The notes under the pieces: model-generated
Told to the model about the DNA's origin: nothing
The model's input: only the letters and a program-made list of their open reading frames with translations
Database searches by the model: none
Origin: Armatimonadota bacterium
GTDB lineage: Bacteria > Armatimonadota > Hebobacteria > CAIYQO01
Length of the DNA stretch: 64,000 nucleotides
Direction of reading: 5' to 3'
Assembly (NCBI GenBank): GCA_029553475.1
Contig: JAKPKV010000114.1
Coordinates: forward strand, 248,001-312,000
Shown here: positions 191 to 28,215 of the stretch, piece by piece
Layout of the letters: the number at the start of each line of letters is the position of its first letter
Numbering within the stretch: the stretch's first letter is position 1
Translations under genes and position numbers: made by a program

Positions 191-368
191 TAAAAGAGAC
201 CCCCAACAAAAATTTACACGCCATCGGATGAATAGCTAGAGCTGGACACGACTTACCTTAACTGCAAAAGGGATTCATCTAGGCGTCGGAGAAACAATAG
301 CTATATCAGTTTCGGTATTTTTGCACAGTGCATTCTGTAGCATTTCTCCTAATTGGGGGAGCCGGCCC
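191..368. other. short intergenic gap before the Gabija-like pair
   Basis: No gene is visible here. The stretch contains a GGGGGA purine run at about 355-360, nine bases before the ATG at 369, and I use it to place the start of the nuclease gene. A longer reading from TTG 321 is possible, but its extra residues do not look like the family. Confidence 0.4.
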
Positions 369-2192: not shown

Positions 2193-2195
2193 CAG

Positions 2196-3623: not shown

Positions 3624-4802
3624 TTATGCGCTCCCTCCGCCATGCATACTCTGGCGTGGTCTGACTTGTACTGGCACGATACTCTCCCGCTCGTCATCTA
3701 TCACAAGGGTCTGGCCTGGGCCGTTCAACAGTTTGATCCTTCCACTCAGATCGCCGGAAAGGTAGTCCTGGCTTAAGGCATCAATGGCCTTATAGTCATC
3801 CCTGGATGTGATCCGATGGACAACCCTAATCCCGCACTGGGTCAATATCTCGGCATCAATGGCCGCTGGCTGCTGGCTGGCAACGATGAGCGATAATCCT
3901 GGTTGGCGCCCTTCCTTTGCCCAGCGAATCAGCACTTCCTTTGATAACGTACTCATACCGCTTGGACAGAAGTTATGCGCCTCATCAATCGCGAACCAGA
4001 CTTTGCGCATATCAGAAGAAAGGCCAAGGGCTTCCCGACGGCGTGCGACCGTGCGAACTTGAAAGATGAAGTTGGCGAGTACTGCCACAACCAGGTTCCG
4101 TAAACCGTAGCGACTTTGGGTCAGCACACTAAGATCAAGAATATTAATCGCGTCAGGCTGGAGAATTTCCCATATTTCGCGGTAGCGCGTTTCCTCGAAT
4201 ATCTGCCAATCATGCGCCATGTCAATTTTGCGTAATAACGCTTCTTTTGTCCGCTCATGCGTCTGAATCTTGCCGATTTCAACCGCAATGTCGTCCAGTA
4301 AGAAGTCGTGCCGGAGCTTCTTCCAACAGTTGCGAACTGCCTTGAACATGGCCGCACCCATCAACTCGTTGATATCCAAATCGAAGAGATCGCACCACAT
4401 CTCAGGGGGAAGATCAGAAGGGTTCAAGCGAAGTCCCTGGATATGGATACCGCGCCGTTCCATCTCAAAGAGAATGTCTTCGCCCCCATACCGTTCAATA
4501 GGATCACCTGGCACCATAACGTTGACACGATAGCCGCGCGGCTCTCGGTCATAATCCCACAAACGCTCTGTCTCTCGGTACGAGGTATTCGCCTGGGCCA
4601 TTGCCCAATATATCCCCTGTGGGTCAGCCAGGAGCACGATATCCTCGCCGATATCGGCAAGCTCCTCGATGAGGACGCCCAGGGTATAAGACTTGCCCGT
4701 CCCAGTCTTCCCACAAATTAAAATGCGCTGTGACTTTTCACAGGCGATGCTAAACGGATCGCCGGTTTCCATATCTTTACCGATAGCGAGACCCTGATTC
4801 AT
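3624..4802 (-). CDS. HerA/DUF87-like ATPase, last gene of the defence operon
   Basis: A 392-aa hexameric-translocase type ATPase. Walker A GKTGTGKS is at residues 31-38, Walker B is WFAIDEAHNF around 270, and a QPGLSLIVASQQP sensor stretch follows, typical of HerA and bacterial DUF87 proteins. HerA-type enzymes pump along double-stranded DNA, and relatives occur in Dnd/Dpt restriction modules (DndH/DptH) and with nucleases. No nuclease domain is fused here. An AGAGG site sits upstream of the ATG. It starts 15 bases after the PglZ-like gene and ends the nine-gene operon. I infer that it supplies a DNA translocation or restriction step. Confidence 0.8.
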   Translation of the reverse strand: MNQGLAIGKDMETGDPFSIACEKSQRILICGKTGTGKSYTLGVLIEELADIGEDIVLLADPQGIYWAMAQANTSYRETERLWDYDREPRGYRVNVMVPGDPIERYGGEDILFEMERRGIHIQGLRLNPSDLPPEMWCDLFDLDINELMGAAMFKAVRNCWKKLRHDFLLDDIAVEIGKIQTHERTKEALLRKIDMAHDWQIFEETRYREIWEILQPDAINILDLSVLTQSRYGLRNLVVAVLANFIFQVRTVARRREALGLSSDMRKVWFAIDEAHNFCPSGMSTLSKEVLIRWAKEGRQPGLSLIVASQQPAAIDAEILTQCGIRVVHRITSRDDYKAIDALSQDYLSGDLSGRIKLLNGPGQTLVIDDERESIVPVQVRPRQSMHGGGSA

Positions 4803-4817
4803 GGTATAACCTCTTCC

Positions 4818-5936
4818 TTACTCGTAGCGCAATATGAATGGGACCAATGATTCCCACGCCGATATGCCCCCGTGGACGCCCCATTCCGTCGCCTTAAATT
4901 TCCGTGTCACGTAAGGCCAGGACAGACACGTGTAGGTATGCTGGCCGTTTTGGAAATACTGTCCAGGCATTTGCCTACGCATTCCACTAAGGTAGCGTTG
5001 ATGATCCGTATCAGAGCTTTGGTATGTTGTAATAACCTCAGCATAAGGTTCAAGGAATTCACGCCATGCAATCCCATGATCGGCGGTGAGGCAGGACAAT
5101 ACCGAATGAGCGTGCTTCTTTGCTGCGGTTATTATGCCGTCAAAGCGCTCCCAAATACGTTGTAAGTATGATTCGCGGAGTGGGTTATCATGATGATTAT
5201 GCGAGCAGTGATCTAATCCCGGCGTTGTGACCTGGATATAGCCATGAGCCAGCTTTGCGAATCGAACAGCCTTAATTGCTTCATCGAACTCACGGATACG
5301 ACGAACTTGTTCCCCGCCGAACAGCGTGAAGAGATCGGCGCTAAGGTCATTGGTCTCAACGTCGTAGAAGGTAAAACCGAGTTGCCGCTTATAGCCTGCC
5401 CGAAACAGATATTGAGATACTGGCGGATTCCCAATGACATCCCGATAACCAATGCTTGTGATACTGCAGCCGTCAACCAAACAAGGTTCCGTCTCAATGT
5501 AAGAAGCCAGGTCGTAATATGACAAGCCGTCAACAACCATTAGCAGAACCACGTCTGGCTGTATCCGGTTCACACTTTCGATCAACCGCTTGCCGATCTC
5601 TCGCTGCTTAAGGAGTAGCCGTTGTGCCAGTGGGTAGCGAATAGCGAGACGTTGCGACAACTCTACTGGGTCTGGACGTTCATGCACGGGATATGCTGGG
5701 AACGGCCAGATCGCATCCTCACCGAATAAGTACTCTCTGCCGTCAGCTTGCAGAGACGGCCCATCAACTTCCCGCAGGTAGGAAAAACCATCGCGAATAG
5801 GTTCAGCATCCTGATCCAGGAACAGCAAATTCAGCGGGTTCCCTTGATAGGCCGCCGGATAGTATTCCAATGCCATTGAGAATGGCCGGAGCTTCTCCTG
5901 AATATACGCAGCAGAATGGTTGAGACCGTCACCCAT
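4818..5936 (-). CDS. pglZ: PglZ-like alkaline-phosphatase-superfamily protein
   Basis: A 372-aa protein with alkaline-phosphatase-superfamily hallmarks: VVLLMVVDGLSYYDL (metal-binding Asp) near residue 150, LTADHGI near 285 and GVHGGIS near 358, close to the C-terminus. PglZ is the only protein shared by all BREX types. This copy is short: canonical PglZ is usually 600-900 aa, so it is close to the catalytic core alone. The ATG overlaps the stop of the large ATPase gene as TGATG, with AAAGGAC as ribosome site, so the two should be made together. Its phosphodiesterase or phosphatase substrate in defence is not known. I am confident of the fold and less so of the subfamily. Confidence 0.75.
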   Translation of the reverse strand: MGDGLNHSAAYIQEKLRPFSMALEYYPAAYQGNPLNLLFLDQDAEPIRDGFSYLREVDGPSLQADGREYLFGEDAIWPFPAYPVHERPDPVELSQRLAIRYPLAQRLLLKQREIGKRLIESVNRIQPDVVLLMVVDGLSYYDLASYIETEPCLVDGCSITSIGYRDVIGNPPVSQYLFRAGYKRQLGFTFYDVETNDLSADLFTLFGGEQVRRIREFDEAIKAVRFAKLAHGYIQVTTPGLDHCSHNHHDNPLRESYLQRIWERFDGIITAAKKHAHSVLSCLTADHGIAWREFLEPYAEVITTYQSSDTDHQRYLSGMRRQMPGQYFQNGQHTYTCLSWPYVTRKFKATEWGVHGGISAWESLVPFILRYE

Positions 5937-8900
5937 CAACGGCGTCCTTTCCGTATGGTAATATCAACCTTCCCGCTGCGGAACAGTTCTGCCATTGCCT
6001 CAAGACACTCGTCGAGCACATGATCGGCACTCTCGCGAGTGTTGAGTAAAGCTAGAACCACTTGCTTCATGTTGAGGTCGCCTTCGGTCTGTTCAACTTG
6101 ATGGAAGACCGTTTGCGCAGTCTCGCCCAGGTCATCCCCAGCCCCGGCCACCGCCTGTCGAATGAGATCATTCGTTTCTTTCGTAAGCCGGCGAGCTTCA
6201 AAGACCGCTGTCTTGAACTCCTCAATGTCGGCCTCTTTAGTTGCACTTCCCACCAGCGCTATGATCCAGTCACTATTTACTGATGCCAGCGTTGTACTCA
6301 ACGTATCACGGATATCATCGAGTCCGGCGACTAGCTCATCAGCCTGATCCGCAGAGACCCGCTTCAAGATGTCACGCGCGTACCGCAGTTCGAGGCTTTG
6401 CTTACTGAGATCGCGCAGGGTCTCAACGAGCAATCCTTGTACAGCCTGTGCGCCCTTTTCATACAGGCGGGTATAGCTGCCCGCAACGTCTTCCTGATCG
6501 AAACCTGCATCCAAGCGGTCTTCGATACCGAACGCGCGCAGGATGCCAAGGATTGCTTCTTTGGCCTCTTTGAAGCGGGCATGAAGGTTCTTCCAGTAGT
6601 CCTCTCGCTCCTGATTCAACTCATCCAGTTGTTTTTTGAATTGCTGATAGGCTCCTAAACCTGCAATATTCTGATACATGAGATGGTCTGATATGTCGCC
6701 CCAAATAACGATGAGACGCTTATAGAGTTCATCTGCCTTCGCTGCATGGTCTGGATCGGCTTTGAGCTTCAGGATGTCGCTGCTTAACTGGTCGGAACTC
6801 CGTAGCAACTGAATCCAGTTGCCCAGCAGCTTCCGCGAACTGTCAAAGGCCCTGGAATCGCCTTCAAGGTCCCCAATAGAGGCACCAAGTTGCTTGATCT
6901 GATCCGCAACGCCTGAAATGGCGGCAATCCTATCCTGCGTCCCAATGGGCAGTTGCGCAAGCTTCGTACTCGCTGCCTCCACAGTGCCCTGGAGTTCAGT
7001 TGCTGTGCTCCGTAGCGCTGTCTTCATTCGGCGAAGATTGGTGACGATATAGGTGTTTAGGTCACTACACCATTTCGATTGACCGGATATATCTCTATCA
7101 AGCGATACCGCATCTCTGCCCGATTGCGCAAGGGCAGTCTGCGTTCGTGTAATGCGATCACTCAAACCACCCAACTGCATGCGGTAATTCGCAACGATTG
7201 ATGATAACTGGTCACTGTTGTGGGCATGGGCCAGCGAAATTCTATGGTTTAACGCCTCATACGCATTTTCATCAGCAACCTGTCGTATCTCGGCAAGCAG
7301 CTCCTCAAGTTTGACAGAAGGTTCAAAGCCTACGAAAGCCGACAGTGTGTTAATTTCCTCTTTAAGCGCATTCCAGCGTTCGAGTAGGCGCTCCCGCATC
7401 TCTTCAGGATTGATGGGCAGGCAGAAGAGAATGCGCGAACCATTGTGCTTCGCAATATCAAACGTTCCCCTTGCTTTACCGATTTCAAAGATGAGTAGGA
7501 GTTCCTCAGCGGTATAGCCGGACGTGAGGAACAAGTCCATGATATCCTTCACGTCAATCCACCAGGTCACTTCCTTACCGTTGACTGTGATCTTCTCGCT
7601 ATCCCCCGGCTCCTGGATTTTATCGCGGATTGCCTGCTCCAACGGGTGAAGTTTGAACTCAATGAGTAGTGGTTTATCACGACCCATCGAGCGGATTATC
7701 AACAGACTTTCATAACCGTCGAAGCCTCCACCGGTCAGGTTCATGACACTGATTCCAAAGACACTTGCTGCCTTCTGCCCAGGAACTTCCCATGTCTGAC
7801 CTCCCCGCTTGCAGACAACAGGAACCTCGGCATGGGCCAGGACGTTGATATAATCCTGAACCTTTTGCTTCCACTGGGGGGTACGTATTAAGGTCACATA
7901 TTCCGGGAAGCGTTTTTTCAGGAGAAATAGTGCAATCCTTCCGATGATCGCAGCGGTAATGTCATGGATCGGCTCGGCCAACGCTTCACCAACTTTATCT
8001 TGGAAGGTCTGATCTGCGAAGAACCGCGTAACGATCTGGCGAAGTAGCGGGTCCTGAATGGCCTTCCATTGACCAGTGACCGCCGTGGGTAACTGAAGGG
8101 CTGCCATTTTCCGCATCAAGAAGAGAATGCCCATCGGCGTGAGAACTGAAGGGTCGAGAATACTCTCCAATCCTTCATGCTGAACCGGATCGCCAACCAG
8201 ATTCATGACGATGCGGATAAAACCGGGACGTTTTTCCGAAGGGCTACCCGCACTGCAATCAAAGGGCACATGGTCCGTAGACGCTTCGACATTCCATCGC
8301 AACGCAAAATGAATAATAATGTCCGGCGCATCGGTATCGCGCCGATTCATGCATTTTCGGAGTTGCCGTGTCTCGACGGTATCAGGTCCGACGGCGATAA
8401 GATACCGCCGCTCCGGGTAATCGCCACGTTGGAAAGCGCCTCTGACATACCGGACGCGCGTATCCCCCATGTCCTGTAATGCAACCCAATCAGCGCCTTC
8501 GTACTCGAAGTCGGTTAATTGTCCGCCACTTCGCTTCTTAATAAGCAGCGGGATCACATAGTCAATAAACGCCAGGCAGGATTCCTTAAACGTGCCAGCG
8601 TGGAGGGCATACTCATCCTTGATGCCGCGTAAGTAGAAAGCCAAATCGTCGTCCGTCACGCCGCCGTCGCCAGGTATAAGCGCGATTAGTCGCACGTATA
8701 AGGGAGGACGATGTTCAATGACGCCGCGACTGTTGCGCGCGAGAGTCAGCATCTCCTCTTTAATGCCCAGCGCGTCCATCAATTGGAAGGTCAGGCCATT
8801 CGGGAATGCAGACAGCAACAAGAACCGATCCCGCGTTGCGTCTGTGACTTCAGGAGACTGAAGGATATCGCCGACTTTCGAGCGATAATCTGGGGTAACT

Positions 8901-10024
8901 AGAATTTCCTGTTCTAAGCAGTCAGTTATAAAGTCAATCGGCTGGTATGGCGAGTGCGTATCATTATAATGATGAATAATTCGATGGAATGCAGAGATCA
9001 CAGAGCGTGGCCCGTATCCCAGGTCCTTCCGTGTAGAGGATGTGACTTGTCCAATCGCCTGCAGCGCTGCTGGCGCGACAATCTGGTCGGGCTGGCTTTC
9101 TAAGCCGAACAACTGCATATAGCGAGACCAGAGTGTGGCTGCAAACTCATCTTTGTAAAGATCATAAAGGCGGGGCAGGCATTGCCGGCACTCCAGGCGG
9201 GCCGGGAGAGACTGCTGTTGTGCTTGCGCCTGCGAGTAGACCTGTTCAGGGATTGAGAAGAAGACGCCATAATTCCCCTGTTGTCGGTAGAGTCCGTCAG
9301 CCAACTCGAACATGATATAGAAGATCTGACTCATACCGATGGCGCGCGCAGCTACTTCCGGCTCGTCAAGCATCACTAGCAGTCCTGCAAAGCCCGCCTG
9401 CTGAATGATCTCTGTCACCTCAGCACAATATGTAAGATAGCGTTCTGGCGTTAAGCTATTCGAGACCAGCCCGCCAGCTTGTTCGGTACGGATATACATC
9501 GCATAGATGTCATCGGCATTACCACCGCTCTGTTCAGCGACCTTATTAGCAATCTCGCGCAGCCCTTGGCCACGGCAACTCTCAAAGAGCCTTTTCGCTT
9601 GTGCCGCAAGTTGCGGGTTTGACTGCATCAGGCAGAAATCAACCCATGCGGCAGTGCCGGCAAGAATGTCATCCAGCGATTGCCAGGAAAATGGCGGAAC
9701 CGCCAGAATACTGCGCGCACGGCTCTGTTCCCACACATGCACTTGAAAGCTCGTTTTGCCTTGCCCGTTGTCGCCGATCACCGCGCCGACGAAGGCTCCC
9801 TGGTTCTGACCGCTGACCCATTTGAAGATCGTATCTACATACTTCTCGGTTGCTGCAAGTTGGATGTAGGTCTTGGCGTGAGTCAGATAGACCGCTTCAA
9901 CATCCCTGGGAGTTCTCTGCAGCGACGAGACAGGGAACGTCGAGATAATCGGCTTCATACCGAGGATGTCTTGAAGGTCGCTCAGTTGAAACTGCTGGGG
10001 AACCGCAACGCTCTCAGGAACCAT
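5936..10024 (-). CDS. 1362-aa P-loop ATPase, BrxC/PglY-like
   Basis: Very large ATPase. From the chosen start (MVPESVAVPQQ) Walker A GDNGQGKTS falls near residues 84-92 and Walker B LLVMLDEPEV near 235. The middle is a large unrecognised region. The last ~450 residues are rich in Glu, Leu, Lys and Gln and look coiled-coil. I chose ATG 10024 over 10069 because GAGAGGAG lies eight bases ahead of it; it overlaps the upstream gene by 11 bases. BREX systems always carry a ~1200-aa ATPase (BrxC/PglY) next to PglZ, and in BREX type 3 a small BrxF ATPase precedes it, exactly the order seen here. Assignment rests on size, P-loop and context; I cannot confirm the DUF family from the sequence alone. Confidence 0.65.
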   Translation of the reverse strand: MVPESVAVPQQFQLSDLQDILGMKPIISTFPVSSLQRTPRDVEAVYLTHAKTYIQLAATEKYVDTIFKWVSGQNQGAFVGAVIGDNGQGKTSFQVHVWEQSRARSILAVPPFSWQSLDDILAGTAAWVDFCLMQSNPQLAAQAKRLFESCRGQGLREIANKVAEQSGGNADDIYAMYIRTEQAGGLVSNSLTPERYLTYCAEVTEIIQQAGFAGLLVMLDEPEVAARAIGMSQIFYIMFELADGLYRQQGNYGVFFSIPEQVYSQAQAQQQSLPARLECRQCLPRLYDLYKDEFAATLWSRYMQLFGLESQPDQIVAPAALQAIGQVTSSTRKDLGYGPRSVISAFHRIIHHYNDTHSPYQPIDFITDCLEQEILVTPDYRSKVGDILQSPEVTDATRDRFLLLSAFPNGLTFQLMDALGIKEEMLTLARNSRGVIEHRPPLYVRLIALIPGDGGVTDDDLAFYLRGIKDEYALHAGTFKESCLAFIDYVIPLLIKKRSGGQLTDFEYEGADWVALQDMGDTRVRYVRGAFQRGDYPERRYLIAVGPDTVETRQLRKCMNRRDTDAPDIIIHFALRWNVEASTDHVPFDCSAGSPSEKRPGFIRIVMNLVGDPVQHEGLESILDPSVLTPMGILFLMRKMAALQLPTAVTGQWKAIQDPLLRQIVTRFFADQTFQDKVGEALAEPIHDITAAIIGRIALFLLKKRFPEYVTLIRTPQWKQKVQDYINVLAHAEVPVVCKRGGQTWEVPGQKAASVFGISVMNLTGGGFDGYESLLIIRSMGRDKPLLIEFKLHPLEQAIRDKIQEPGDSEKITVNGKEVTWWIDVKDIMDLFLTSGYTAEELLLIFEIGKARGTFDIAKHNGSRILFCLPINPEEMRERLLERWNALKEEINTLSAFVGFEPSVKLEELLAEIRQVADENAYEALNHRISLAHAHNSDQLSSIVANYRMQLGGLSDRITRTQTALAQSGRDAVSLDRDISGQSKWCSDLNTYIVTNLRRMKTALRSTATELQGTVEAASTKLAQLPIGTQDRIAAISGVADQIKQLGASIGDLEGDSRAFDSSRKLLGNWIQLLRSSDQLSSDILKLKADPDHAAKADELYKRLIVIWGDISDHLMYQNIAGLGAYQQFKKQLDELNQEREDYWKNLHARFKEAKEAILGILRAFGIEDRLDAGFDQEDVAGSYTRLYEKGAQAVQGLLVETLRDLSKQSLELRYARDILKRVSADQADELVAGLDDIRDTLSTTLASVNSDWIIALVGSATKEADIEEFKTAVFEARRLTKETNDLIRQAVAGAGDDLGETAQTVFHQVEQTEGDLNMKQVVLALLNTRESADHVLDECLEAMAELFRSGKVDITIRKGRR

Positions 10025-10523
10025 AATACGCTCCTCTCTGGATGGCCTCTTCCCGTAAGATTGCGCCAAGGTCAGTACCTGTTGGCGCAGTCTGGAAGGC
10101 CGAAATAATATGGTTTTCGGTTAAGTTCCGCACGAACTGGTTCAGGTCACGCTCAGTTAAGGCAAGTTCAATCTTGGGCATCGGGTCTGAAGGAGGACGA
10201 CGGCTAAGGAGAATAATGCGTGGCAAATCTTTCAATAGCGCTTCATTATGGAGCATCCGTGTATATTCAACCCCATCCAAAACCACATTCTTTGCGCCGG
10301 CGGGGGCGTCTGCCAGGGTATTCACATAGCAATACTCCTGCTCTGCAGCAAGCAGTCGCCCGATAAACGTTTTGCCAACGCCCGGCATACCACTAAGACA
10401 GATGAACTGCGCGGTCGCCCACTTGGAGCACAATGCCTGGTAGACGGCGCGTTGCGCCTCTGTCAGCCACTCGGAAGTGGCCTGGGCTTTGATCGCGTTC
10501 AGCCATGTGATGTATAGGCTCAT
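10014..10523 (-). CDS. small P-loop ATPase, BrxF-like
   Basis: A 169-aa single-domain P-loop protein with Walker A GMPGVGKT at residues 45-52 and the IILLSRRPPSD stretch near 105 as the only further ATPase-like landmark. Size and position directly upstream of a giant BrxC-like ATPase match BrxF of type 3 BREX. The ATG overlaps the previous stop as ATGA, and its own stop overlaps the ATPase start, so it is stitched tightly into the operon. BrxF has no established biochemical role; I infer that it is an accessory ATPase for the neighbouring large protein. It could also be a generic AAA loader. Confidence 0.55.
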   Translation of the reverse strand: MSLYITWLNAIKAQATSEWLTEAQRAVYQALCSKWATAQFICLSGMPGVGKTFIGRLLAAEQEYCYVNTLADAPAGAKNVVLDGVEYTRMLHNEALLKDLPRIILLSRRPPSDPMPKIELALTERDLNQFVRNLTENHIISAFQTAPTGTDLGAILREEAIQRGAYYGS

Positions 10524-11356
10524 AGGTCTTCTACCGTAAATGGACGTTTGAGAGTGAAAGCTGTTCCAGCTAGAGTATCACGTTTACTGATAATATGACT
10601 TGCGATCTGCGTCGCAAGCAGCAAGTTATCATACGAGCACTGCGGGTCAACTAAAAATATACTCCTAATTTGATCGGCAATCTCCTCTGACAGTATGATT
10701 GGATCACCATACCTAATACATGTGCTTGTATATAGATCGTCAAGCGCAAGTAAAGAAAGCTCGTAGTGTTCAATAGATCGTGGAACTAATTGGTGCTGTG
10801 CAAAAGCCGAAGGTGATAACGCCTTAAGCCAAGTACATACAGCACCAACTGCCGTATGATTAAAACGTGCCCCAACCTTTGCGGAAAAATCTAACTCTGG
10901 GAATTCCATTGCCATAAATGACTGAATCATCTGTGCGATATGCTGCTTATCCCCAATACTCTTCATGCTCCAGATTAATTCGCAGCATTTTCGATAGCTC
11001 CACAGAGATTTTCTGCCACGAATCCTATAGCCAGTGTAATGGAGGTAATGCAATATATCATAAGCATAATACTCGTCATAACTAGCGATAGATTGGACTT
11101 TCGAGCCAATGGAACTCAAAGTATAAAATGTCTTACTTGCATTTTTGTACTGCTCTGCTAGGCCTAAATCATACAGTCTTCGCGGCGAGTAGCTATGATC
11201 CTTCTGCATAGAGTAGCCATAGTCGCGAGTTAGTTCAAGCGCAATATCATCTGGTGTTTTCCCGATGGTTGGCGTAAGAATGCGCAATACATTCGCTACT
11301 TCCGTAGGTGATGCATTATCAACGTAAAAATGCTTGTCCTCTTTGGGATTTGACAT
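10520..11356 (-). CDS. unknown operon protein, possible winged-helix
   Basis: A 278-aa protein I do not recognise. The N-terminal third (ELTRDYGYS, then YSPRRLYDLGLAEQ, then FYTLSSIGSKVQ) reads like a winged-helix or DUF4007-type recognition module in which a strand-specific label is read. The rest is helical and Tyr-rich, with a DILHYLHYTGYR patch. A clear AAAGGAG site precedes the ATG. It lies between the SBD-like and BrxF-like genes and shares an ATGA overlap with the latter. Its codon use is noticeably more AT-rich than the 16 kb end of the operon. A role as DNA- or protein-recognition subunit is a guess. Confidence 0.5.
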   Translation of the reverse strand: MSNPKEDKHFYVDNASPTEVANVLRILTPTIGKTPDDIALELTRDYGYSMQKDHSYSPRRLYDLGLAEQYKNASKTFYTLSSIGSKVQSIASYDEYYAYDILHYLHYTGYRIRGRKSLWSYRKCCELIWSMKSIGDKQHIAQMIQSFMAMEFPELDFSAKVGARFNHTAVGAVCTWLKALSPSAFAQHQLVPRSIEHYELSLLALDDLYTSTCIRYGDPIILSEEIADQIRSIFLVDPQCSYDNLLLATQIASHIISKRDTLAGTAFTLKRPFTVEDL

Positions 11357-11373
11357 ATCACTACTCCTTTATT

Positions 11374-12117
11374 CTATACTGCCAGATTTCCACTACCTTT
11401 TGAATGACGTGAGTAACCTAGAAGATATGCGCGCCGCAGATATTCTGCATATACTTCATTATCTCGATTCTCATTACTTGCAATCGCAAGTATTAATTCA
11501 TCAACAAGTCTTTCAATTTGCGTTAAGGATTGCTGATATGCGGCATTCGCCTCATCAAGTTCGAGTAAGCTTGATATACTTGTATAATAACTATCACCAT
11601 CAATAATGACACTAGAAGGTCGAGCTTGATATGGGTTGTCCCATTTAAGTGCTTGCTGTAGCCGTTCCTGTTTATGATCCTCAAATTGAGAGATTATGAA
11701 ATCACGGATCGCTTCTCTCGAATCCCTGTTTATGAATAGACGAAATACATCTTCATCTAGGTATACATAATCTATACCTTCTATAATTCGCTTCTTACCA
11801 CCGCCAGAAGTTTTGAGCGATGCGTAATACTCCTCGTTTCCTGACTTAATTTTGTGCTTCCAAAATGATGCTGTTCTTAAATGAAAGAAAGGCGGAGCTG
11901 GTTGACACCAATCCCCTTCGTCAGCAATCAAAGAAAAATATAGCCGGAATCGTGTTATCAGCGAGTCACTAAAGTACATCTTATTGATGGCAATAAGACC
12001 CGTCTCTGCCATGTCGAGGACAGACAGCAACATCACAAGTTTGTGAGGCTTTAGTCTGTCACCAACTTTTGCTCTACGCAGAGTTTGTAGCTCAGACAGA
12101 AGATCAGGTAGGTCCAT
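11374..12117 (-). CDS. protein with N-terminal sulfur-binding-domain-like module, no HNH
   Basis: A 247-aa protein. Residues ~20-100 carry the pattern of the N-terminal domain found in many HNH restriction enzymes and in phosphorothioate-reading ScoMcrA-type proteins: KPHKLVMLLSVLD, a spaced Phe/Tyr segment, then PAPPFFHLRTASFWKHK. No His-Asn-His motif follows; the C-terminal half is helical (DEANAAYQQSLTQIERLVDE). It is encoded 12 bases after the DndC-like gene with an AAAGGAC ribosome site. The simplest reading is a sensor that recognises a modified or special DNA state without cutting, the nuclease being elsewhere in the complex. That is inference; only the domain resemblance and context are visible. 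Confidence 0.55.
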   Translation of the reverse strand: MDLPDLLSELQTLRRAKVGDRLKPHKLVMLLSVLDMAETGLIAINKMYFSDSLITRFRLYFSLIADEGDWCQPAPPFFHLRTASFWKHKIKSGNEEYYASLKTSGGGKKRIIEGIDYVYLDEDVFRLFINRDSREAIRDFIISQFEDHKQERLQQALKWDNPYQARPSSVIIDGDSYYTSISSLLELDEANAAYQQSLTQIERLVDELILAIASNENRDNEVYAEYLRRAYLLGYSRHSKGSGNLAV

Positions 12118-12129
12118 GCCCCGTCCTTT

Positions 12130-12918
12130 CTATAACGAGCAAATAAGGCACGCCTGGTCGTAACCATCATCAATCGAATCCCACATGGTCGTGGGTTTCG
12201 AGCAAATTCTCTCTGGTCTTGATTGGAACTCTTCAATAATCGCTTCCATCCGGTCTTCTTCCATCATCTCGGCAAGGCTCTCCCGCTCACACCAACAAAA
12301 TCGTTCTCCTGTCACGGGATCAACCTTCTCATACGCCATCGCTTTGTCGTATAACTTGCGATGATGCTGGAAAAGACCAATCCATTCAATCCTCCGTTGG
12401 AAGAAGCAGAAATAGCATCCAGAACGAGAACGCCATTTATAGTATTCTGGATAACCAAGCCCACTTTCGATTAAAATACTATTGACATCCTCCTTGGTAA
12501 TCCCATCCTCAATGAAAGGATACTTCGCTTGGAGATTCGGCCTATGGGAAACATATCCTTCACGATCTTCGTCAGCCCGAATTCCAATGTAGTTAATGAC
12601 GGGATCGCTTCCTACATATCGTTCAAACGGTCGAATCTTTAGCATTCGCGTACACCAGCGGGTTCTTGCATCTGGAAGAACGCCACGGTAGATGTGACGA
12701 AGGTAATCATCAAACGACTTGTCTGGTAGAAGTCTGATGATCTTCTTGCCAAGGAATGCTTCAAGCTTGTTTAGATACTCGTAGGTTTCAGGTAGCTCCT
12801 CGCCGGTATCACAAAAGACATATTCAACACTTTCGAGTCTTCCCCGCATATAGATTGCTAGGGCGGATGAATCCTTACCACCTGAAAGTGAAATAATATG
12901 TCGTACTGGTAATGGCAT
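12130..12918 (-). CDS. PAPS-reductase/DndC-like PP-loop enzyme (BrxP-like)
   Basis: A 262-aa PP-loop ATP pyrophosphatase. The SGGKDSS motif is at residues 11-17, followed by FCDTGEELPETYEY, typical of the PAPS-reductase/DndC family. Cysteines at RTRWCTRMLKI, SGCYFCFFQRR, FCWCER and the terminal CLICSL could bind an iron-sulfur cluster or zinc. DndC/SspD activates DNA (by adenylation or similar) for sulfur insertion, and BrxP is the PAPS-reductase-domain protein of type 4 BREX. Here it is fourth from the end of upstream ATPase genes but has no cysteine desulfurase, DndD or DndE beside it. Chemistry on DNA is therefore inferred. It starts two bases after the stop of the 1120-aa ATPase. Confidence 0.75.
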   Translation of the reverse strand: MPLPVRHIISLSGGKDSSALAIYMRGRLESVEYVFCDTGEELPETYEYLNKLEAFLGKKIIRLLPDKSFDDYLRHIYRGVLPDARTRWCTRMLKIRPFERYVGSDPVINYIGIRADEDREGYVSHRPNLQAKYPFIEDGITKEDVNSILIESGLGYPEYYKWRSRSGCYFCFFQRRIEWIGLFQHHRKLYDKAMAYEKVDPVTGERFCWCERESLAEMMEEDRMEAIIEEFQSRPERICSKPTTMWDSIDDGYDQACLICSL

Positions 12919-12920
12919 GG

Positions 12921-15900
12921 TTACTTTCGCTCCTCTGCAGTGCCTACATGATCCAATAGGGCAATTGCTTCATATAATGAAGCACGGACAATACGAACTT
13001 CACTGCCTGATCTATGCCCGGCGGATTCCAATACCCTGCGTGCAAGCCGTTTGCTTTCCTCAATCTCAGCCTGAGACATAGATTTCCATAGTTCAACTAA
13101 GCCAATACTATTCGATTGTATTGCCCTTCGGTAAAGCGTACCGATGGCTTTTGCATTGATAGGGTAACGCTCGGCATCAGTGTCAGTCCAATGCCGAGGA
13201 GGGTTGTTTGCAATTAACGCTAACACACTCTCAATAACAGCCTCATCGTCCCCTTCCATCGCAGCACGGTTTAGAAAAGGCAGCAAAGAACTATCTGCTG
13301 TTACTGTTAATAACTCGACAGCGGTATGCCTCAGTTTCTGCCATCCAGCCAATCCAGTCGGTTCCCCACATGCATCTAACAATATATCACGTGATCGGAT
13401 AAGGAGCTTGGGTAGTGCTTCTGCCAGTTCTTGTAAGGCAGAATTAAGCGCATTAAAGAAATTGGAGATCGTGCATTCGCTATCTTGAGTCTCGGATAGG
13501 GGAACCTTCAAGGCATTCGGCAAATCTATGAATAACAGTTGTTCTGGCGATTTCGCCCTCTCAACGGCCCGGCGCAAAGACTGGGCTTTGGTCGAGACGC
13601 GATGCGTTTTCCATGCATAAGGGGGTAATGCTTTTAGCCGACGTAATAACTCTCTTACTACAAGGGGCACTTCGGCGCGCAGTCCAAGGCCACGAGCAAT
13701 TCGTTGGAGCATCATCGCCCGAACACCTGTTACTCGGCATCCTGCAACCGTGAATAGGTCAGGCCGACGCATTAAAACCTCATAATCGGCAACTACTGTT
13801 TCGGTCAGGAATGCTCCTTCGCGGTATAGAGTCGCTTCATGGTCATGAACCTGCATAAATGCGCAAAACAGTATCGGCAATATCCCTTCAGTGAGACCGT
13901 AAGGCATTGCGCGCAACGTCTCGAACAGGTCTGCGACGGGTCGAGGTTTCGGCGGCTCCATAAATACAAAATCGGATATAGCCTTCCAACACTCCGCTAA
14001 TTCCTCATCATCTGCTGGATCAGGCGCGCAGAAAGACCATACGCCGGGCTGTATTTCACGATGTAATCCCGTCGCCTGGAGGATGCATTCATACATACTC
14101 CGCTCTGGCGGATAACCTTCAATCCCCAGGTTCTCCTGGCTGGCACACTTCAGCATCGCCTCGATTAGATTCCGCCGCCCAGCAGCGGCAGCCGAGGAAA
14201 ATACCTGCCGGTTGATGAGTTCATTGCGTAAGCGTGGCGAATAGGGATAACTCTCATCAGCCATCGTCGAAAGCTGACTTGAGAAATGGCGTTGCCCTTC
14301 CAAGGGCAGGATACTTCCACGATAGAACCAGGTCGCGCCCCCTGTAGATGGACTGAAAACGCGCTCCCATTCATTCCGAAATGCGGTCTGGGCTTCCAGT
14401 AGACGCAGCGCTAATTCGCGTCGGGCAGCTTCGTCGCCGGCTAATTCCGGCGTGGATTCCTTGACACGGGCTGCCGCCGCCACGTCAAGCGCGGCTTCGC
14501 GCATGATATCCGTTTCCATGCCAATAGCAACCAGGAGGTTTGCATCGCTTTGCAACCGCGCGAGCGCCTCAACCATCTGCGCTTCTTCATTCGTTGTCGC
14601 GAGACAGTAAAGCACGGTCAATGAACCGGAAGATTTTTCTGTCGCGCGCTCTAACTCTTCAGGAGCACAGGGGAGCATTTGGACGGTACGCAGCGTTCCC
14701 GTCTGATAGGAATGCCGGCGGGCGATTTGGCTGGCCTGCGGGCAGAGATTGGATGCAACGTGGAGCGTTGTTCCTGCCGGCAATCCGATACGCGCCGCTT
14801 CCAGCGCGCCAGCGACATCAATATCGCCGCCTTCCCACAAGCGGTACGTGCCGCGAAGCCGGCTTTTGACAATGACGGCACGTTGCTGTAGCTCATTCAG
14901 TGCTTCTGCTACATTCGGGTACTGGCCGTGAGCATCCGTGAGAGCAAGCTCCAGCACTTCTTCCGTCGGCGGCAATTTCGGGTCCCGCAATATTCCAAAC
15001 AGCCCAATGCACTTCAGGAGTTGCATGGCTTCAGGCGATATATTATGCGTTCGCTCGATCAACTCAATGGATTCGACCCACAGACGGCTGATACCCGACG
15101 TGCTCCATCCGCCAACAAGCACTTCCGCTGAATAATCAAAGAGCCGATCAACTGTGAGCAGTGGGAAGTCACCCTCCTCAAAGGAGGACTCTCGCAAAAA
15201 GGCTCCGAGTGCGTAAGGTTCATGACCGGCAAGAAAATTGAACAGGCTCCGATGACTTTGCCCGGTTCGCCGGAAAAGGGTTGGCAGGGCAATCAGCGTG
15301 ACTGGATGCAGGGGGTAGGCAGCATGGGCAACATCGGCAAAACGTTCCTTCAGCCCAACGGGAAGCGAAAGTTGCTCACTGCACTGGTTGACTAACGCCT
15401 CATATGCTTCTGGGTATACGATAGGCTCTCGCTGCTCAATCGCATACCCGATCAGGTCAACTTGTTCGGAATCCGATGGCGAGAATTGATGGGTTCTGAA
15501 CCGTTCACCAACCTTGGCCCATTCCGTTTGATTCGTCTTCCCCAGCTTGCGCGCATAAGCATCCGCGTTCTGATGGAGCACGCCCATGAAGATCAACGGC
15601 GTAGCGCCACTTCGCACGGCAACTTCGGCAATCTCTTGCAACACAAAGATATCTTCGGTATCGGGATGCAGTGCGGCATACTCTAACAGTTTGCCCATCT
15701 CATCCACGATCACCAGTAGGCCAGACGCTTCTTCCAGCCCTGCCTGCTCTGCTGCGAATTTATAGAGATCAGCGACTTGCCGTGAGGTTGGGGTTTGGGA
15801 AGCAAGGACTTCCGCCCATTCCGACGTGATCGCCTCAACCAAATGGATATAACCACCGCGCTTTAATGCGGAAACCAGGCCCTTGACCAGGGTCTTTGTC

Positions 15901-16283
15901 AGCGATTGCCGAGAGCCGACGATCAAGACGGGGATTAACGCACGACTCGGTTGCAGGAGTTTCGCAGCAAGCTCCGCATCCACTAATTCCAGATGATGGG
16001 CAGCGCCGTTACGTGGCTTTCGGGGATTCAGCAACCGAGCGGTATAAACGCACAGGGCGCTTTTCCCAGCGCCATACGGCCCGACCAGGGTAATGGCCCG
16101 TTCACTCTGCTGCTCATATGCGGAGGCGACCAACTGTAAAACAGCATAGGCACAGGGCGTTATATGGTAACCATTCCCTTGTGCGTCGTAGTAGTCACGC
16201 TCCAAGTGAACGGATCGCTGGAACCGTCCACGGATCGAGATGATATCGGCTAAAGATCGCGATTTAATGGCTGGCGTGCTCAT
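12921..16283 (-). CDS. 1120-aa ATP-binding protein of the DUF4007 neighbourhood
   Basis: Large ATPase with Walker A LVGPYGAGKSA at residues 66-76 and Walker B LLVIVDEMGKLLE near 189-201. After this comes a conserved AAA-like segment (GVLHQNADAYARKL, WAKVGERFRTHQF), then a long helical region with no recognisable nuclease or methylase motif. It overlaps the DUF4007 gene by 20 bases and is two bases from the DndC-like gene. Proteins of this size and layout occur beside DUF4007 and DndC-like genes in defence islands. It may use ATP to remodel a DNA-bound complex, in parallel with the second giant ATPase of the same operon. No family name can be given safely. Confidence 0.65.
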   Translation of the reverse strand: MSTPAIKSRSLADIISIRGRFQRSVHLERDYYDAQGNGYHITPCAYAVLQLVASAYEQQSERAITLVGPYGAGKSALCVYTARLLNPRKPRNGAAHHLELVDAELAAKLLQPSRALIPVLIVGSRQSLTKTLVKGLVSALKRGGYIHLVEAITSEWAEVLASQTPTSRQVADLYKFAAEQAGLEEASGLLVIVDEMGKLLEYAALHPDTEDIFVLQEIAEVAVRSGATPLIFMGVLHQNADAYARKLGKTNQTEWAKVGERFRTHQFSPSDSEQVDLIGYAIEQREPIVYPEAYEALVNQCSEQLSLPVGLKERFADVAHAAYPLHPVTLIALPTLFRRTGQSHRSLFNFLAGHEPYALGAFLRESSFEEGDFPLLTVDRLFDYSAEVLVGGWSTSGISRLWVESIELIERTHNISPEAMQLLKCIGLFGILRDPKLPPTEEVLELALTDAHGQYPNVAEALNELQQRAVIVKSRLRGTYRLWEGGDIDVAGALEAARIGLPAGTTLHVASNLCPQASQIARRHSYQTGTLRTVQMLPCAPEELERATEKSSGSLTVLYCLATTNEEAQMVEALARLQSDANLLVAIGMETDIMREAALDVAAAARVKESTPELAGDEAARRELALRLLEAQTAFRNEWERVFSPSTGGATWFYRGSILPLEGQRHFSSQLSTMADESYPYSPRLRNELINRQVFSSAAAAGRRNLIEAMLKCASQENLGIEGYPPERSMYECILQATGLHREIQPGVWSFCAPDPADDEELAECWKAISDFVFMEPPKPRPVADLFETLRAMPYGLTEGILPILFCAFMQVHDHEATLYREGAFLTETVVADYEVLMRRPDLFTVAGCRVTGVRAMMLQRIARGLGLRAEVPLVVRELLRRLKALPPYAWKTHRVSTKAQSLRRAVERAKSPEQLLFIDLPNALKVPLSETQDSECTISNFFNALNSALQELAEALPKLLIRSRDILLDACGEPTGLAGWQKLRHTAVELLTVTADSSLLPFLNRAAMEGDDEAVIESVLALIANNPPRHWTDTDAERYPINAKAIGTLYRRAIQSNSIGLVELWKSMSQAEIEESKRLARRVLESAGHRSGSEVRIVRASLYEAIALLDHVGTAEERK

Positions 16284-17217
16284 AATAGCTCTTCAAAAAT
16301 GCGAATGGCTCGATTGGTCCGGTATCATGACGAAGGACCTGGCGTACTAATGCGGTATCCTGAAAGCTGTATTTGCCTTCTGTCAGCGGCTCAATATCAT
16401 CAAGGTAGGAAAGGATGCTATCTTCATCCAGCTTGAAGACCATGCCCGGACTCCCTTCCGCATATGTCAGGTCCCACACGGAAAGTGCCGTTGAATCGCC
16501 TTGTCGCCACTGCCAGAAGCACAACATGGCATAGTAGAAGATATAGTTCGGAAGCGAAGGCTTCGGGCCAAGCTGAAACCGGAAGTGGCGTGCGTAGCAT
16601 GGTTCGATCAAGTGCAACTGCTGGAGCGGACAATCAATCTCGTCATCCGCTCCCGCTTTTCGCTCAGGCGTCACATAGGTATGGAGCAAGCAGTCAATGT
16701 CGCGCGCAATGGTTCCCCAACTCTTTGATTCTCGATACGATTCAGGGAGGGCGCTAATGACTGACTCCACCAAGGATTCCCGCGAGAATTCGTATTCCCG
16801 ATGCACGTTAAACGTCCAGACCCAGGAGTAGGCTTTCCCTGCTGGTGCGGCTAATCCCCAGTGCAACAGCCAAAGCGTGGCGATATCTTCAAGGTAGGGG
16901 TCCCAGCCTTCGTTATCTGGCCCACCGAATAACGCCTTACCTAATTTGCTCGGATATAGCTCACGGCCACGTGTGCCAGGCGCATCTTCGGCGACACCCG
17001 ACATGAGTAACCAGTGGCGGATACTCTGGACCATGTTCTTTCCAACGCCGAGTGTCACGAGAGCGTCGTCACGGGAAAAGAAGCTTGGACCGCCGACACT
17101 GATATCCTGCAGCGCATCCAGGCCCTTTTTCAGCCATCCTGCTCGGAATGCGAAAGTTTGATGCCCGGCGAATGATGGATTGGTTGGCAATAAGGTTGAG
17201 TGCCTCGGTATAGTCAT
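16264..17217 (-). CDS. DUF4007 protein, first gene of the defence operon
   Basis: A 317-aa protein with clear DUF4007 features: FAGHQTFAFRAGWLKKGLDAL at residues ~16-36, FFSRDDALVTLGVGKNMVQSI, then a WDPYLEDIATLWLLHWGL stretch. DUF4007 proteins are repeatedly found next to DndC/PAPS-reductase genes and are thought to bind DNA or link modification to restriction; no activity is established. It is the promoter-proximal gene. An AGAAGG site lies 12 bases before the ATG. The following ATPase starts inside its last codons. Confidence 0.85.
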   Translation of the reverse strand: MTIPRHSTLLPTNPSFAGHQTFAFRAGWLKKGLDALQDISVGGPSFFSRDDALVTLGVGKNMVQSIRHWLLMSGVAEDAPGTRGRELYPSKLGKALFGGPDNEGWDPYLEDIATLWLLHWGLAAPAGKAYSWVWTFNVHREYEFSRESLVESVISALPESYRESKSWGTIARDIDCLLHTYVTPERKAGADDEIDCPLQQLHLIEPCYARHFRFQLGPKPSLPNYIFYYAMLCFWQWRQGDSTALSVWDLTYAEGSPGMVFKLDEDSILSYLDDIEPLTEGKYSFQDTALVRQVLRHDTGPIEPFAFLKSYYEHASH

Positions 17218-17600
17218 GAACGGTCTGGACCTTCTGGAATGCCAATGGCAGGCTAGGGAACGACCTTCTCCCCTATCCTGATTCGCCGCTACTTACCCGA
17301 TACCTACCGTTGACCGAGAGAAAAATAGCACGTACCCGCCAATCCTTTCCAACCAGCTTCTTTCACTATCTTCTATTATGCCAGTGGCAGAGGGACAGAA
17401 TCTGTCCTCGCAAGGGAAGAAGTAGATTTTTGCATGGGTAGGCATTGCAGACGAGAACAGGGAAGGCAAGAATAAAAGGTCCGGCCCTCATTTTCGGAAG
17501 GCCGGACCTATTGCCGTAGATTCGCCACGGCGGTTCGTATTATTGATTAAGGCGGCTGTAGGGCAAGTCTGCCCGACAGCGGTTGGGAATTGCTGTTCCC
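17218..17600. other. intergenic region upstream of the defence operon
   Basis: A 380-base gap without a convincing gene. It must hold the promoter of the minus-strand operon; A+T-rich TATTTTT near 17326-17333 (minus) is the only weak -10-like candidate I see, with no good -35. The left half is otherwise featureless, and the right part contains the terminator hairpin of the preceding gene. Confidence 0.4.
17471..17509 (-). terminator. rho-independent terminator
   Basis: Perfect 10-bp stem AGGTCCGGCC/GGCCGGACCT (17477-17486 with 17500-17509) and a 13-base loop. On the minus strand the stem is followed by TTTTATT, the U-tract. It lies about 90 bases past the stop of the 134-aa gene at 17601-18005, so it should end that transcript and insulate the nine-gene operon. 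Confidence 0.8.
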
Positions 17601-23406: not shown

Positions 23407-24990
23407 ATGTATTGCGTGATCTATAGCCGATTCTCCTCGGATAACCAGCGAGAAGAATCTATTACCGCCCAACTTCGCGCGTGCCGGGCCTATGCTGAGC
23501 AGCAAGGCTATGCGGTCATACAGACCTATACGGATGAAGCCCGCAGCGCTACGACAGATGATCGGCCCGCGTTCCTGGCGATGATTGCCGATATCACACA
23601 AGGACGCTGCCGGGCTGATATCGTGCTCGTGCATAAGCTTGATCGCTTTGCCCGCAATCGGTATGACAGCGCCTACTATAAGCGCGAATTGCGCAAAGCG
23701 GGCTGCCGGATAGAGTCTGTGCTAGAACGGCTGGATGATTCCCCGGAATCCGTCCTGATGGAGTCTGTCATTGAAGGAATGGCGGAGTATTACTCCAAGA
23801 ATCTAGCCCGCGAAACAATGAAGGGTATGAAGGAAAATGCGCTACAGGGGCGGCATACCGGCGGACGCTGCCCCCTGGGATACTGCGTGGATGAGCGCGG
23901 GCACTATCAGATAGATGAAACAACAGCCCCTGCCATCCGCCTGCTCTTCCAGAGTTACGCACGCGGCGAAAGCTATAAAATGATCTGCGACCGGCTCAAT
24001 GCTGCCGGGTATCGCACAGCAACCGGTGGTCTGTGGCGTGCGACCTGCCTTCCAGATATTCTGCGGAACGAAAAATACGCCGGCGTCTTTGTCTTTAACC
24101 GTTCTGCGGCGAAAGTGGACGGCAAACGCAACCATCATCGCCAGAAAACCGCTGATGATATTATCCGCGTGCCGGGCGCAATCCCGACCCTGGTTGATGC
24201 CGAAACCTGGCAAGCGGTCCAAGCGCGGATGGAAGCCCATCAGTCACCGCATAATCGCGGACGTAATGGCGCAAAGGTGCTCTACCTGCTCTCCGGTCTG
24301 ATTTACTGCGGTGAGTGCGGCGAGCGGTTGGTCGGCGCGTCTTCCAGTTACCACACGCGCGTCAGCCAGGAATGGCGGCAGCGCAATTACTACAGTTGCC
24401 GTCTGAAATGCGGCCTGAAGCGCATCCAGCAAGAAGAAGTGGAAGCGGTCATCATGCGGGCACTCGAACGAGAAGTGCTCGACCCGGAGAATATGCGGGA
24501 GATGGCTCACAACGCCGTAACCGGCATGGAAGCGCGCCAGCAGACGAATCGTGGCGAAGGCCCGCATCTACAGCAAGAATTACGGCGGGTTGAGGAGCGC
24601 ATTGCCAATCTCGTGCAGGCTATTGCCAGCGCAGGCGGAGCGAATGTCCAGGCGCTCATCGCAGAGATTGACCGGCTGGAGCAGACCAAAGCGACGTTGC
24701 GGACGCGTTTGGACGAGTGGGATATCGTGCAACACATGGCGGTAACAGAGGAGCATATTTACCAGGAGTTACTCAGGCAGCGAGCGACGCTCCTTGAACG
24801 AAACCCGCTGGAAGTGAAACGAATCGTGCAGAATCTCGTGGCGCGGGTGACTGTGACTGTCGCCGATATCAAGGCGCAGTTCGCGCTCACCGCATCCAGC
24901 TTGCTGGACGACTGTGCATTCATATGGTGGAGGCGGGGGGAGTCGAACCCCCGTCCGAAGACCGGGCCACGCTGGCCACTACGAGCGTAG
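23407..24990 (+). CDS. large serine recombinase (integrase) of the element
   Basis: A 527-aa large serine recombinase. The N-terminal resolvase domain has YSRFSSDNQREES (nucleophile Ser at residue 10) and VHKLDRFARNR. It is followed by the recombinase domain (GGRCPLGYCVDERG ... ILRNEKYAGVFVFN), a zinc-ribbon CGECGERL ... YYSCRLKCG and a coiled-coil stretch rich in Glu and Leu. The last 22 or so codons (from about 24925) are read from the antisense of ssrA (the WWRRGESNPRP string), so the natural C-terminus is set by the host junction. The ATG has no strong ribosome site. It most likely integrates and excises the whole left segment at the tmRNA gene. Confidence 0.9.
   Translation: MYCVIYSRFSSDNQREESITAQLRACRAYAEQQGYAVIQTYTDEARSATTDDRPAFLAMIADITQGRCRADIVLVHKLDRFARNRYDSAYYKRELRKAGCRIESVLERLDDSPESVLMESVIEGMAEYYSKNLARETMKGMKENALQGRHTGGRCPLGYCVDERGHYQIDETTAPAIRLLFQSYARGESYKMICDRLNAAGYRTATGGLWRATCLPDILRNEKYAGVFVFNRSAAKVDGKRNHHRQKTADDIIRVPGAIPTLVDAETWQAVQARMEAHQSPHNRGRNGAKVLYLLSGLIYCGECGERLVGASSSYHTRVSQEWRQRNYYSCRLKCGLKRIQQEEVEAVIMRALEREVLDPENMREMAHNAVTGMEARQQTNRGEGPHLQQELRRVEERIANLVQAIASAGGANVQALIAEIDRLEQTKATLRTRLDEWDIVQHMAVTEEHIYQELLRQRATLLERNPLEVKRIVQNLVARVTVTVADIKAQFALTASSLLDDCAFIWWRRGESNPRPKTGPRWPLRA
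24915..24990. other. island/chromosome junction (attachment site)
   Basis: The serine recombinase gene meets the 3' end of ssrA here, GC content rises sharply to the right, and integration at the 3' end of tmRNA is a classic event. The tmRNA 3' end is complete (acceptor stem and CCA), so the element side carries the regenerated end. No second copy of the T-arm/acceptor sequence was noticed between 1 and 24,900, so the other junction should lie left of the window. The exact crossover dinucleotide cannot be read from one side. Confidence 0.65.
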
Positions 24991-28122: not shown

Positions 28123-28215
28123 GTATTGGCAGCACAAACACTTGCGCGGGAACGCCAGTTTGTGTAAAATATGTATAGATATTGGTCGCATTGCTGTACG
28201 GGAGAGCACGGTTCC

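What the first reader, a model, noticed from the sequence alone, without database searches (positions are those of the whole stretch)
3624..17217. Nine-gene BREX/phosphorothioation hybrid operon
Directly seen: nine tightly packed minus-strand genes (several ATGA-type overlaps) encoding DUF4007, a 1120-aa ATPase, a DndC/BrxP-like PP-loop enzyme, an SBD-like protein, an unknown, a BrxF-like ATPase, a 1362-aa BrxC/PglY-like ATPase, PglZ and HerA. Known: PglZ plus a giant BrxC ATPase defines BREX; PAPS-reductase proteins define BREX type 4 (with BrxL) and Dnd/Ssp. This cluster lacks PglX, BrxL, DndA, DndD and DndE, so it fits no named type I know. Inference: a defence system joining PP-loop DNA chemistry with PglZ and HerA effectors.
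Basis: partly seen in the sequence, partly recalled or inferred. Interest (0 to 1): 0.88.

Follow-up and report, generated by a model that had tools for sequence, protein, structure and literature searches.

The report
Sulfur-marking genes joined to BRC defence
This is a nine-gene bacterial defence operon in which enzymes that mark the cell's own DNA with sulfur are joined to a five-gene DNA-destroying machine so far described only with base-modifying enzymes; the pairing recurs in four bacterial phyla and gives the widespread sulfur-marking genes a new likely restriction partner.

Summary
The nine-gene operon is real (largest gap 17 bp). Genes 1-3 are SspB, SspC and SspD, the phosphorothioate (PT) writers of the Ssp system. 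Gene 4 is a sulfur-binding-domain protein (E = 1.5e-21 to the solved SBDHga) without a recognised nuclease. Genes 5-9 (winged-helix protein, small ATPase, 1362-aa BrxC-like ATPase, compact PglZ, HerA) are, in order, the core of the 'BREX-Related Capture' (BRC) system published in January 2026. BRC was described with TGT/GNAT base-modification genes; that paper calls PT marking specific to type 4 BREX. The PT-BRC pairing is not an accident of one genome: the core is PT-linked in six genomes of four phyla (five next to ssp genes, one next to a cysteine desulfurase and DndB). Their giant ATPases form one clade (100/100), whereas 18 of 21 other loci carry TGT and none has Ssp genes nearby. SspC relationships do not follow the core, so writer modules were probably exchanged. 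The operon sits in a mobile element integrated at the tmRNA gene. Most likely mechanism: PT marks self, and the HerA/PglZ core attacks DNA without the mark, as SspFGH and DndFGH do. Function is inferred, not tested.

The parts
16264..17217 (-). SspB (DUF4007), DNA-binding part of the PT writer
   Evidence: PADLOC SspB 2.6e-87; Pfam DUF4007 1.8e-78
12921..16283 (-). SspC, ATPase of the PT writer, Walker A GPYGAGKS
   Evidence: PADLOC SspC 7.5e-287; motif
12130..12918 (-). SspD, PP-loop (PAPS-reductase-like) sulfur transferase, SGGKDS
   Evidence: PADLOC SspD 1.1e-103; Pfam PAPS_reduct 1.4e-12; motif
11374..12117 (-). Sulfur-binding-domain protein, predicted PT reader without a recognised nuclease domain
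   Evidence: phmmer to 8h0l SBDHga 1.5e-21 over residues 20-140; HK and PF..L..W motifs
10520..11356 (-). Predicted multi-winged-helix DNA-binding protein, counterpart of the DUF4007-like component of BRC
   Evidence: profile recovers the held-out Haloplanus BRC gene at 2.7e-38; model pLDDT 78 with weak winged-helix matches incl. SspB
10014..10523 (-). Small P-loop ATPase, counterpart of the BRC STAND NTPase
   Evidence: Walker A; profile recovers the held-out Haloplanus gene at 1.1e-14; weak AAA/nSTAND3 matches
5936..10024 (-). 1362-aa BrxC/DUF6079-like giant ATPase
   Evidence: Pfam BrxC_BrxD in 7 of 8 family members, best 3.3e-6; held-out Haloplanus gene 3.7e-188
4818..5939 (-). Compact PglZ, predicted metal-dependent nuclease
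   Evidence: Pfam PglZ in 5 of 8 members, best 0.0019; predicted fold matches PorX, NPPs and BREX PglZ; seven active-site residues invariant
3624..4802 (-). HerA-type DNA translocase
   Evidence: Pfam HerA central domain 4e-13; 69-75% identical to the other PT-BRC HerAs, 49-50% to haloarchaeal BRC HerA
17477..17509 (-). Terminator-like hairpin upstream of the operon (13 pairs, then TTTATT)
   Evidence: consensus match only
24922..24938 (.). Right end of the carrying mobile element: 17 bp spanning the tmRNA 3' end, repeated exactly at contig position 243243-243259 (4.76 kb left of the window)
23407..24990 (+). Large serine recombinase of the carrying element
   Evidence: NCBIfam CcrB/XisF/CcrC family matches up to 2.9e-36

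Best explanation
A PT-marked BRC system ('PT-BRC'), a restriction-modification-like anti-invader system. (1) SspD, fed by a housekeeping cysteine desulfurase, together with SspB and SspC writes phosphorothioates into host DNA at short motifs. (2) The winged-helix protein, small ATPase and giant BrxC-like ATPase form a complex that surveys DNA for target sites. (3) If PT is absent, HerA pumps the DNA while PglZ, a metal-dependent nuclease, nicks or cuts it. (4) PT on self DNA blocks step 2 or 3. The SBD protein, found only in the Armatimonadota version, reads PT and probably sharpens self-recognition. Shown here: gene identities, conserved order, clade structure, intact active sites. Inferred from characterised relatives: PT writing and nuclease activity. 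Pure inference: complex assembly, the PT-protects logic, the SBD protein's role.
For: SspBCD by profile. Core identity to BRC by held-out profiles and by description. Conserved operon in G226 and deltaproteobacteria. PT-linked cores form one clade 100/100. Active sites intact. SBD match. For the direction: the same core is paired elsewhere with TGT, an unrelated mark, so recognition of unmodified DNA is simpler than positive reading of two chemistries; SBD is dispensable; translocase-containing SspFGH and DndFGH are PT-protected.
Against: No functional data. The adjacent SBD reader would also fit a PT-triggered system. The winged-helix and small-ATPase assignments rest on weak structure or profile matches outside the family. 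The Anaerolineales member has sspDBC on a different contig.
Confidence: 0.68

Rival explanations
1. PT-activated system: PT is the trigger. The SBD protein or the core senses PT and switches on PglZ/HerA against invading DNA, as PT stimulates SspE.
For: An SBD protein lies inside the operon; SspE shows the precedent of PT-sensing restriction with SspABCD.
Against: SBD is missing from four of six PT-linked genomes; the core also works, presumably, with TGT-type marks; the architecture resembles SspFGH/DndFGH, not SspE.
Confidence: 0.2
2. Two independent modules lying together: sspBCD with epigenetic or regulatory roles, next to a PT-independent BRC core.
For: sspBCD is often found without a known partner; SspC and core phylogenies disagree.
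Against: One operon with overlaps and short gaps in two genomes whose giant ATPases are 37% identical; the same junction in deltaproteobacteria; all members of one core clade are PT-linked although writers were exchanged.
Confidence: 0.07
3. A type 4 BREX variant in which HerA has replaced BrxL.
For: Type 4 BREX shares SspB/SspC/SspD homologues and PglZ; the Thermomicrobium locus has a parallel layout ending in PglZ-BrxL, and its SspC is a close relative of the window's.
Against: The core is the BRC core, gene for gene; the Thermomicrobium giant and small proteins show no detectable relation to it, only the PglZ catalytic core aligns; BrxL absent from the genome.
Confidence: 0.05

Closest known systems
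BREX-Related Capture (BRC) system (Rakesh & Krishnan, NAR 2026, PMC12839542)
   Same: Five core genes in the same order: DNA-binding protein, small NTPase, BrxC/DUF6079-like ATPase, compact PglZ, HerA.
   Different: BRC is described with TGT and GNAT genes; here there is SspBCD plus an SBD protein, and the giant ATPase belongs to a separate PT-linked clade.
SspABCD-SspFGH (PMC8092258)
   Same: SspBCD writer; restriction half with ATPases and an FtsK/HerA-type motor.
   Different: No SspF, SspG or SspH match in the window although the same models hit an Agrobacterium control; nuclease is PglZ.
SspABCD-SspE
   Same: SspBCD writer.
   Different: No SspE match among the nine proteins.
Type 4 BREX
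   Same: PT chemistry with SspB/C/D homologues, PglZ and, in Thermomicrobium, a parallel gene layout.
   Different: No BrxL in the genome; HerA present; core genes are BRC-type.
DndABCDE-DndFGH
   Same: PT-based defence with a HerA-type motor (DndH, 2.8e-6 to HerA).
   Different: No DndD/DndE/DndF/DndG proteins; writer is SspD, not DndC.
MADS
   Same: HerA resembles Mad8 (82 bits), as does the end of SspH.
   Different: None of the nine proteins matches another Mad protein.

Membership tests
BRC | HerA/FtsK translocase (universal) | tested here: met
BRC | PglZ lacking the C-terminal extras of BREX PglZ | tested here: met
   373 aa, PglZ fold and active site; presence of the N-terminal inactive helicase domain not resolved
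BRC | DUF6079 / BrxC-like ORC/Cdc6 ATPase | tested here: met
   BrxC_BrxD in 7 of 8 members; held-out BRC giant ATPase 3.7e-188; no direct DUF6079 match was seen
BRC | Active STAND NTPase | tested here: inconclusive
   Orthologous position and profile, Walker A; STAND membership only weakly supported
BRC | DUF4007-type tripartite DNA-binding protein | tested here: inconclusive
   Orthologue of the BRC gene but no Pfam DUF4007 match; fold match to SspB weak, TM 0.39
BRC | GNAT and TGT (in a subset) | tested here: not met
   None in the operon; sspBCD in their place. The publication treats them as optional
Ssp (SspABCD) | SspB, SspC and SspD | tested here: met
Ssp (SspABCD) | Cysteine desulfurase SspA or housekeeping substitute | tested here: inconclusive
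   Not in the operon; five strong class V aminotransferase-family genes elsewhere in the genome, their role untested
Ssp (SspABCD) | PT in host DNA | not testable with these tools
   needs mass spectrometry
Ssp (SspABCD) | SspE or SspFGH as restriction partner | tested here: not met
BREX type 4 | BrxL | tested here: not met
   no match in the whole genome
BREX type 4 | PAPS reductase, DUF4007, BrxC(SspC), PglZ | tested here: met
   PglZ is the compact BRC type
BREX type 1 | PglX methyltransferase and BrxL | tested here: not met
   no methyltransferase among the nine proteins; BrxL absent
Dnd | DndC, DndD, DndE | tested here: not met
   SspD 1.1e-103 against DndC 1.9e-4; no DndD or DndE match

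The most novel reading that the evidence does not exclude
The five-gene core is a mark-agnostic restriction engine that recognises unmodified DNA and has been paired with two chemically unrelated self marks, backbone sulfur and 7-deazaguanine; within the PT-paired lineage the writer cassettes have been swapped, and the Armatimonadota branch added a dedicated sulfur reader.
Probability: 0.45. Interest if true: 0.78.

Novelty: new variant of a known kind. Interest (0 to 1): 0.62.

Why it matters
In 2021 about 84% of sspBCD clusters had no recognised restriction partner (PMC8092258); PT-BRC is a concrete candidate for some of them. It also shows that the BRC core is not tied to base modification, so what a restriction machine must read to tell self from non-self becomes testable by exchanging writers on one core. 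The SBD protein is a predicted PT reader without a recognised nuclease beside PT writers, unlike the SBD-HNH enzymes that cut PT DNA.

Tried and rejected
Core as SspFGH, DndFGH or MADS: no matches apart from HerA to Mad8 and weakly to DndH. Viral contigs with the HerA profile: no relatives. Plasmids with the winged-helix protein: none. PDB search with the giant-ATPase profile: only coiled-coil matches, ignored. PDB search with the winged-helix profile: nothing significant. Homology of the core to the Thermomicrobium BREX-4-like genes: not detectable except the PglZ catalytic motifs (single sequences on that side, so sensitivity was low). BRC core in six plasmid sspBCD loci as a negative control: absent. 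About 50 further HerA loci, mostly archaeal, lack the other core genes apart from marginal hits and were not pursued.

Full report
OBSERVATION. The window holds nine adjacent minus-strand ORFs between 3624 and 17217 with gaps of at most 17 bp and four overlaps, so one transcription unit is likely. A strong terminator-like hairpin lies just upstream of the first gene (17477-17509), although the scan as a whole finds no excess of such sites.

WRITER GENES. The first three genes are SspB, SspC and SspD by PADLOC profiles (2.6e-87, 7.5e-287, 1.1e-103); SspB also matches Pfam DUF4007 at 1.8e-78. SspD keeps the SGGKDS PP-loop and SspC its Walker A. BrxP and DndC score far lower. No SspA is in the operon; five strong class V aminotransferase (cysteine-desulfurase superfamily) genes lie elsewhere in the 5.27-Mb genome, and IscS is known to serve SspBCD in Vibrio anguillarum (PMC8092258).

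READER GENE. The fourth protein matches the solved sulfur-binding domain SBDHga (8h0l) at 1.5e-21 over residues 20-140. The HK pair and the PF..L..W type motif described for SBDs in PMC7461809 are kept in the window and G226 proteins. No nuclease family was matched. Of the six PT-linked genomes only the two Armatimonadota carry it, so it is an accessory.

RESTRICTION CORE. Genes 5-9 were recognised through homologues. A tblastn against plasmids found a Haloplanus locus with QueC, QueE and a QueD-like gene nearby, then a TGT, two small genes, a giant 'BREX ATP-binding' protein, PglZ-like and HerA-like genes and a GNAT. This is the BRC system of PMC12839542, whose parts are PglZ, DUF6079, STAND NTPase, DUF4007-type DNA-binding protein, HerA and, in a subset, GNAT and TGT. 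Profiles built without the Haloplanus locus recover its five core genes at 2.7e-38, 1.1e-14, 3.7e-188, 3.3e-64 and 7.7e-181. PglZ: Pfam PglZ in five of eight family members, predicted fold like PorX, NPP phosphodiesterases and a BREX PglZ, and seven positions (D137, T161, D243, H247, D287, H288, H356) invariant in eight of eight; they have the spacing of the alkaline-phosphatase/NPP active site as I know it. By position T161 and H356 correspond to T538/H741 of E. fergusonii PglZ, shown to be a metal-dependent nuclease (PMC12205998); that correspondence is inferred. Giant ATPase: BrxC_BrxD in seven of eight members. The winged-helix protein is modelled at pLDDT 78; its fold matches are weak, largely winged-helix proteins, and SspB gives the best query-normalised TM among those listed (0.39). 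The small ATPase has a Walker A and only weak AAA/STAND matches.

CONSERVATION. G226, an Armatimonadota genome of another family, has all nine genes in order; its giant ATPase is 37% identical. A genome-wide HerA scan gave three deltaproteobacterial loci: L011 and L015 with sspB-sspC-sspD directly before the five-gene core, and L013 whose contig begins in sspD. An Anaerolineales locus (L012) has the core preceded by an SspA/DndA-like cysteine desulfurase, a small GIY-YIG-like protein and DndB; SspD-, SspB- and SspC-like genes sit on another contig of that genome. Searches of 291 Armatimonadota genomes, 390 of the class of L011, 396 of the class of L012 and 294 of the class of L014 gave 17 further loci that were read, none PT-linked. 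Of the 21 non-PT loci in the tree, 18 have a TGT beside the core and none has an Ssp gene nearby; L117, L118 and L010 have neither.

PHYLOGENY. In a tree of 27 giant ATPases the six PT-linked ones form one clade (100/100) on a long stem. In a tree of 11 SspC proteins the same hosts fall in separate places: the Armatimonadota pair near Thermomicrobium (support below the tool's mark), the deltaproteobacterial pair as sister to a cyanobacterial SspC (100/100), and the Anaerolineales one apart on a long branch; supported branches force at least two changes. The sample is small. The simple reading is that one core lineage became PT-coupled and its writer cassette was later replaced.

CONTROLS. Six plasmid sspBCD loci contain no BRC core. 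In one of them PADLOC finds SspF, SspG and SspH, which shows that its models work and that the window lacks these. BrxL is absent from the genome. The Thermomicrobium locus has a parallel layout with BrxL at the end; its giant and small proteins show no detectable relation to the BRC core, and only the PglZ catalytic core aligns. The likeness of layout may reflect a deep relation that these tools do not show.

SETTING. The host is Armatimonadota, inferred because G226, in the same phylum, corresponds to a named Armatimonadetes MAG. GC falls from about 69% to about 51% across the region. A serine recombinase abuts the tmRNA gene, and 17 bp spanning the tmRNA 3' end recur exactly 4.76 kb left of the window, giving a likely 29.7-kb element integrated at ssrA with primase-type genes, a Gabija-like locus and PT-BRC.

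MECHANISM. Committed view: PT is the self mark and the core attacks DNA without it. Reasons: the same core is paired elsewhere with an unrelated mark, so recognition of unmodified DNA is simpler than positive reading of two chemistries; the SBD reader is dispensable; FtsK/HerA-type motors accompany the PT-protective systems SspFGH and DndFGH. Confidence for this direction alone is about 0.7; for the identification as SspBCD plus BRC core about 0.95.

NOVELTY. PMC12839542 states in its main text that PT modification is specific to type 4 BREX and that BRC uses GNAT/TGT. Literature searches found no paper on SspBCD with a BRC core. Supplementary tables could not be read and preprints are not held. 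Each half is a known kind; the combination, its conservation and the exchange of writers are new to the sources available here.

Noticed in passing
window 321-3581 (+): Gabija-like locus: GajA-type ATPase (PADLOC 8.3e-38) and GajB-type UvrD helicase (1.7e-19); the GajA frame carries one in-frame stop at codon 375 that separates it from its remainder.
   Followed up: partly
contig 243243-243259 and window 24922-24938: Exact 17-bp repeat spanning the tmRNA 3' end marks a likely 29.7-kb element at ssrA; the low-GC tract goes on a further 11 kb or so to the left, perhaps a second insertion.
   Followed up: partly
window 28171-30077 (+): A second low-GC islet (49% GC) with a TcmP three-Cys-motif partner protein (6.5e-40) and a radical-SAM-mobile-pair-A/DUF5131-like gene (4e-25).
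   Followed up: no
L135 14030-29593: Thermomicrobium roseum plasmid: sspBCD followed by a second DUF4007 protein, 166-aa and 1401-aa proteins, PglZ, BrxL and a cysteine desulfurase; the 1401-aa protein matches no PADLOC or NCBIfam model.
   Followed up: partly
L007 11738-17894: Oscillatoria plasmid with a GNAT-TGT fusion-like gene, winged-helix protein and giant ATPase but no PglZ or HerA beside them.
   Followed up: no
L118 4106-12542: Chloroflexota locus where winged-helix protein, small ATPase and giant ATPase follow a DUF2357/PDDEXK_7 nuclease, with neither TGT, Ssp, PglZ nor HerA: a possible third pairing.
   Followed up: no
L011 11234-12993; L012 1062-2881: A small GIY-YIG-like protein next to a DndB homologue accompanies PT-BRC in two phyla; role unknown.
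   Followed up: no
L116 14289-16532; L119 290-2857: Large proteins with repeated RNA-polymerase alpha-CTD domains, sigma-70 region 4 and HARE-HTH directly upstream of TGT-linked BRC cores in Chloroflexota.
   Followed up: no
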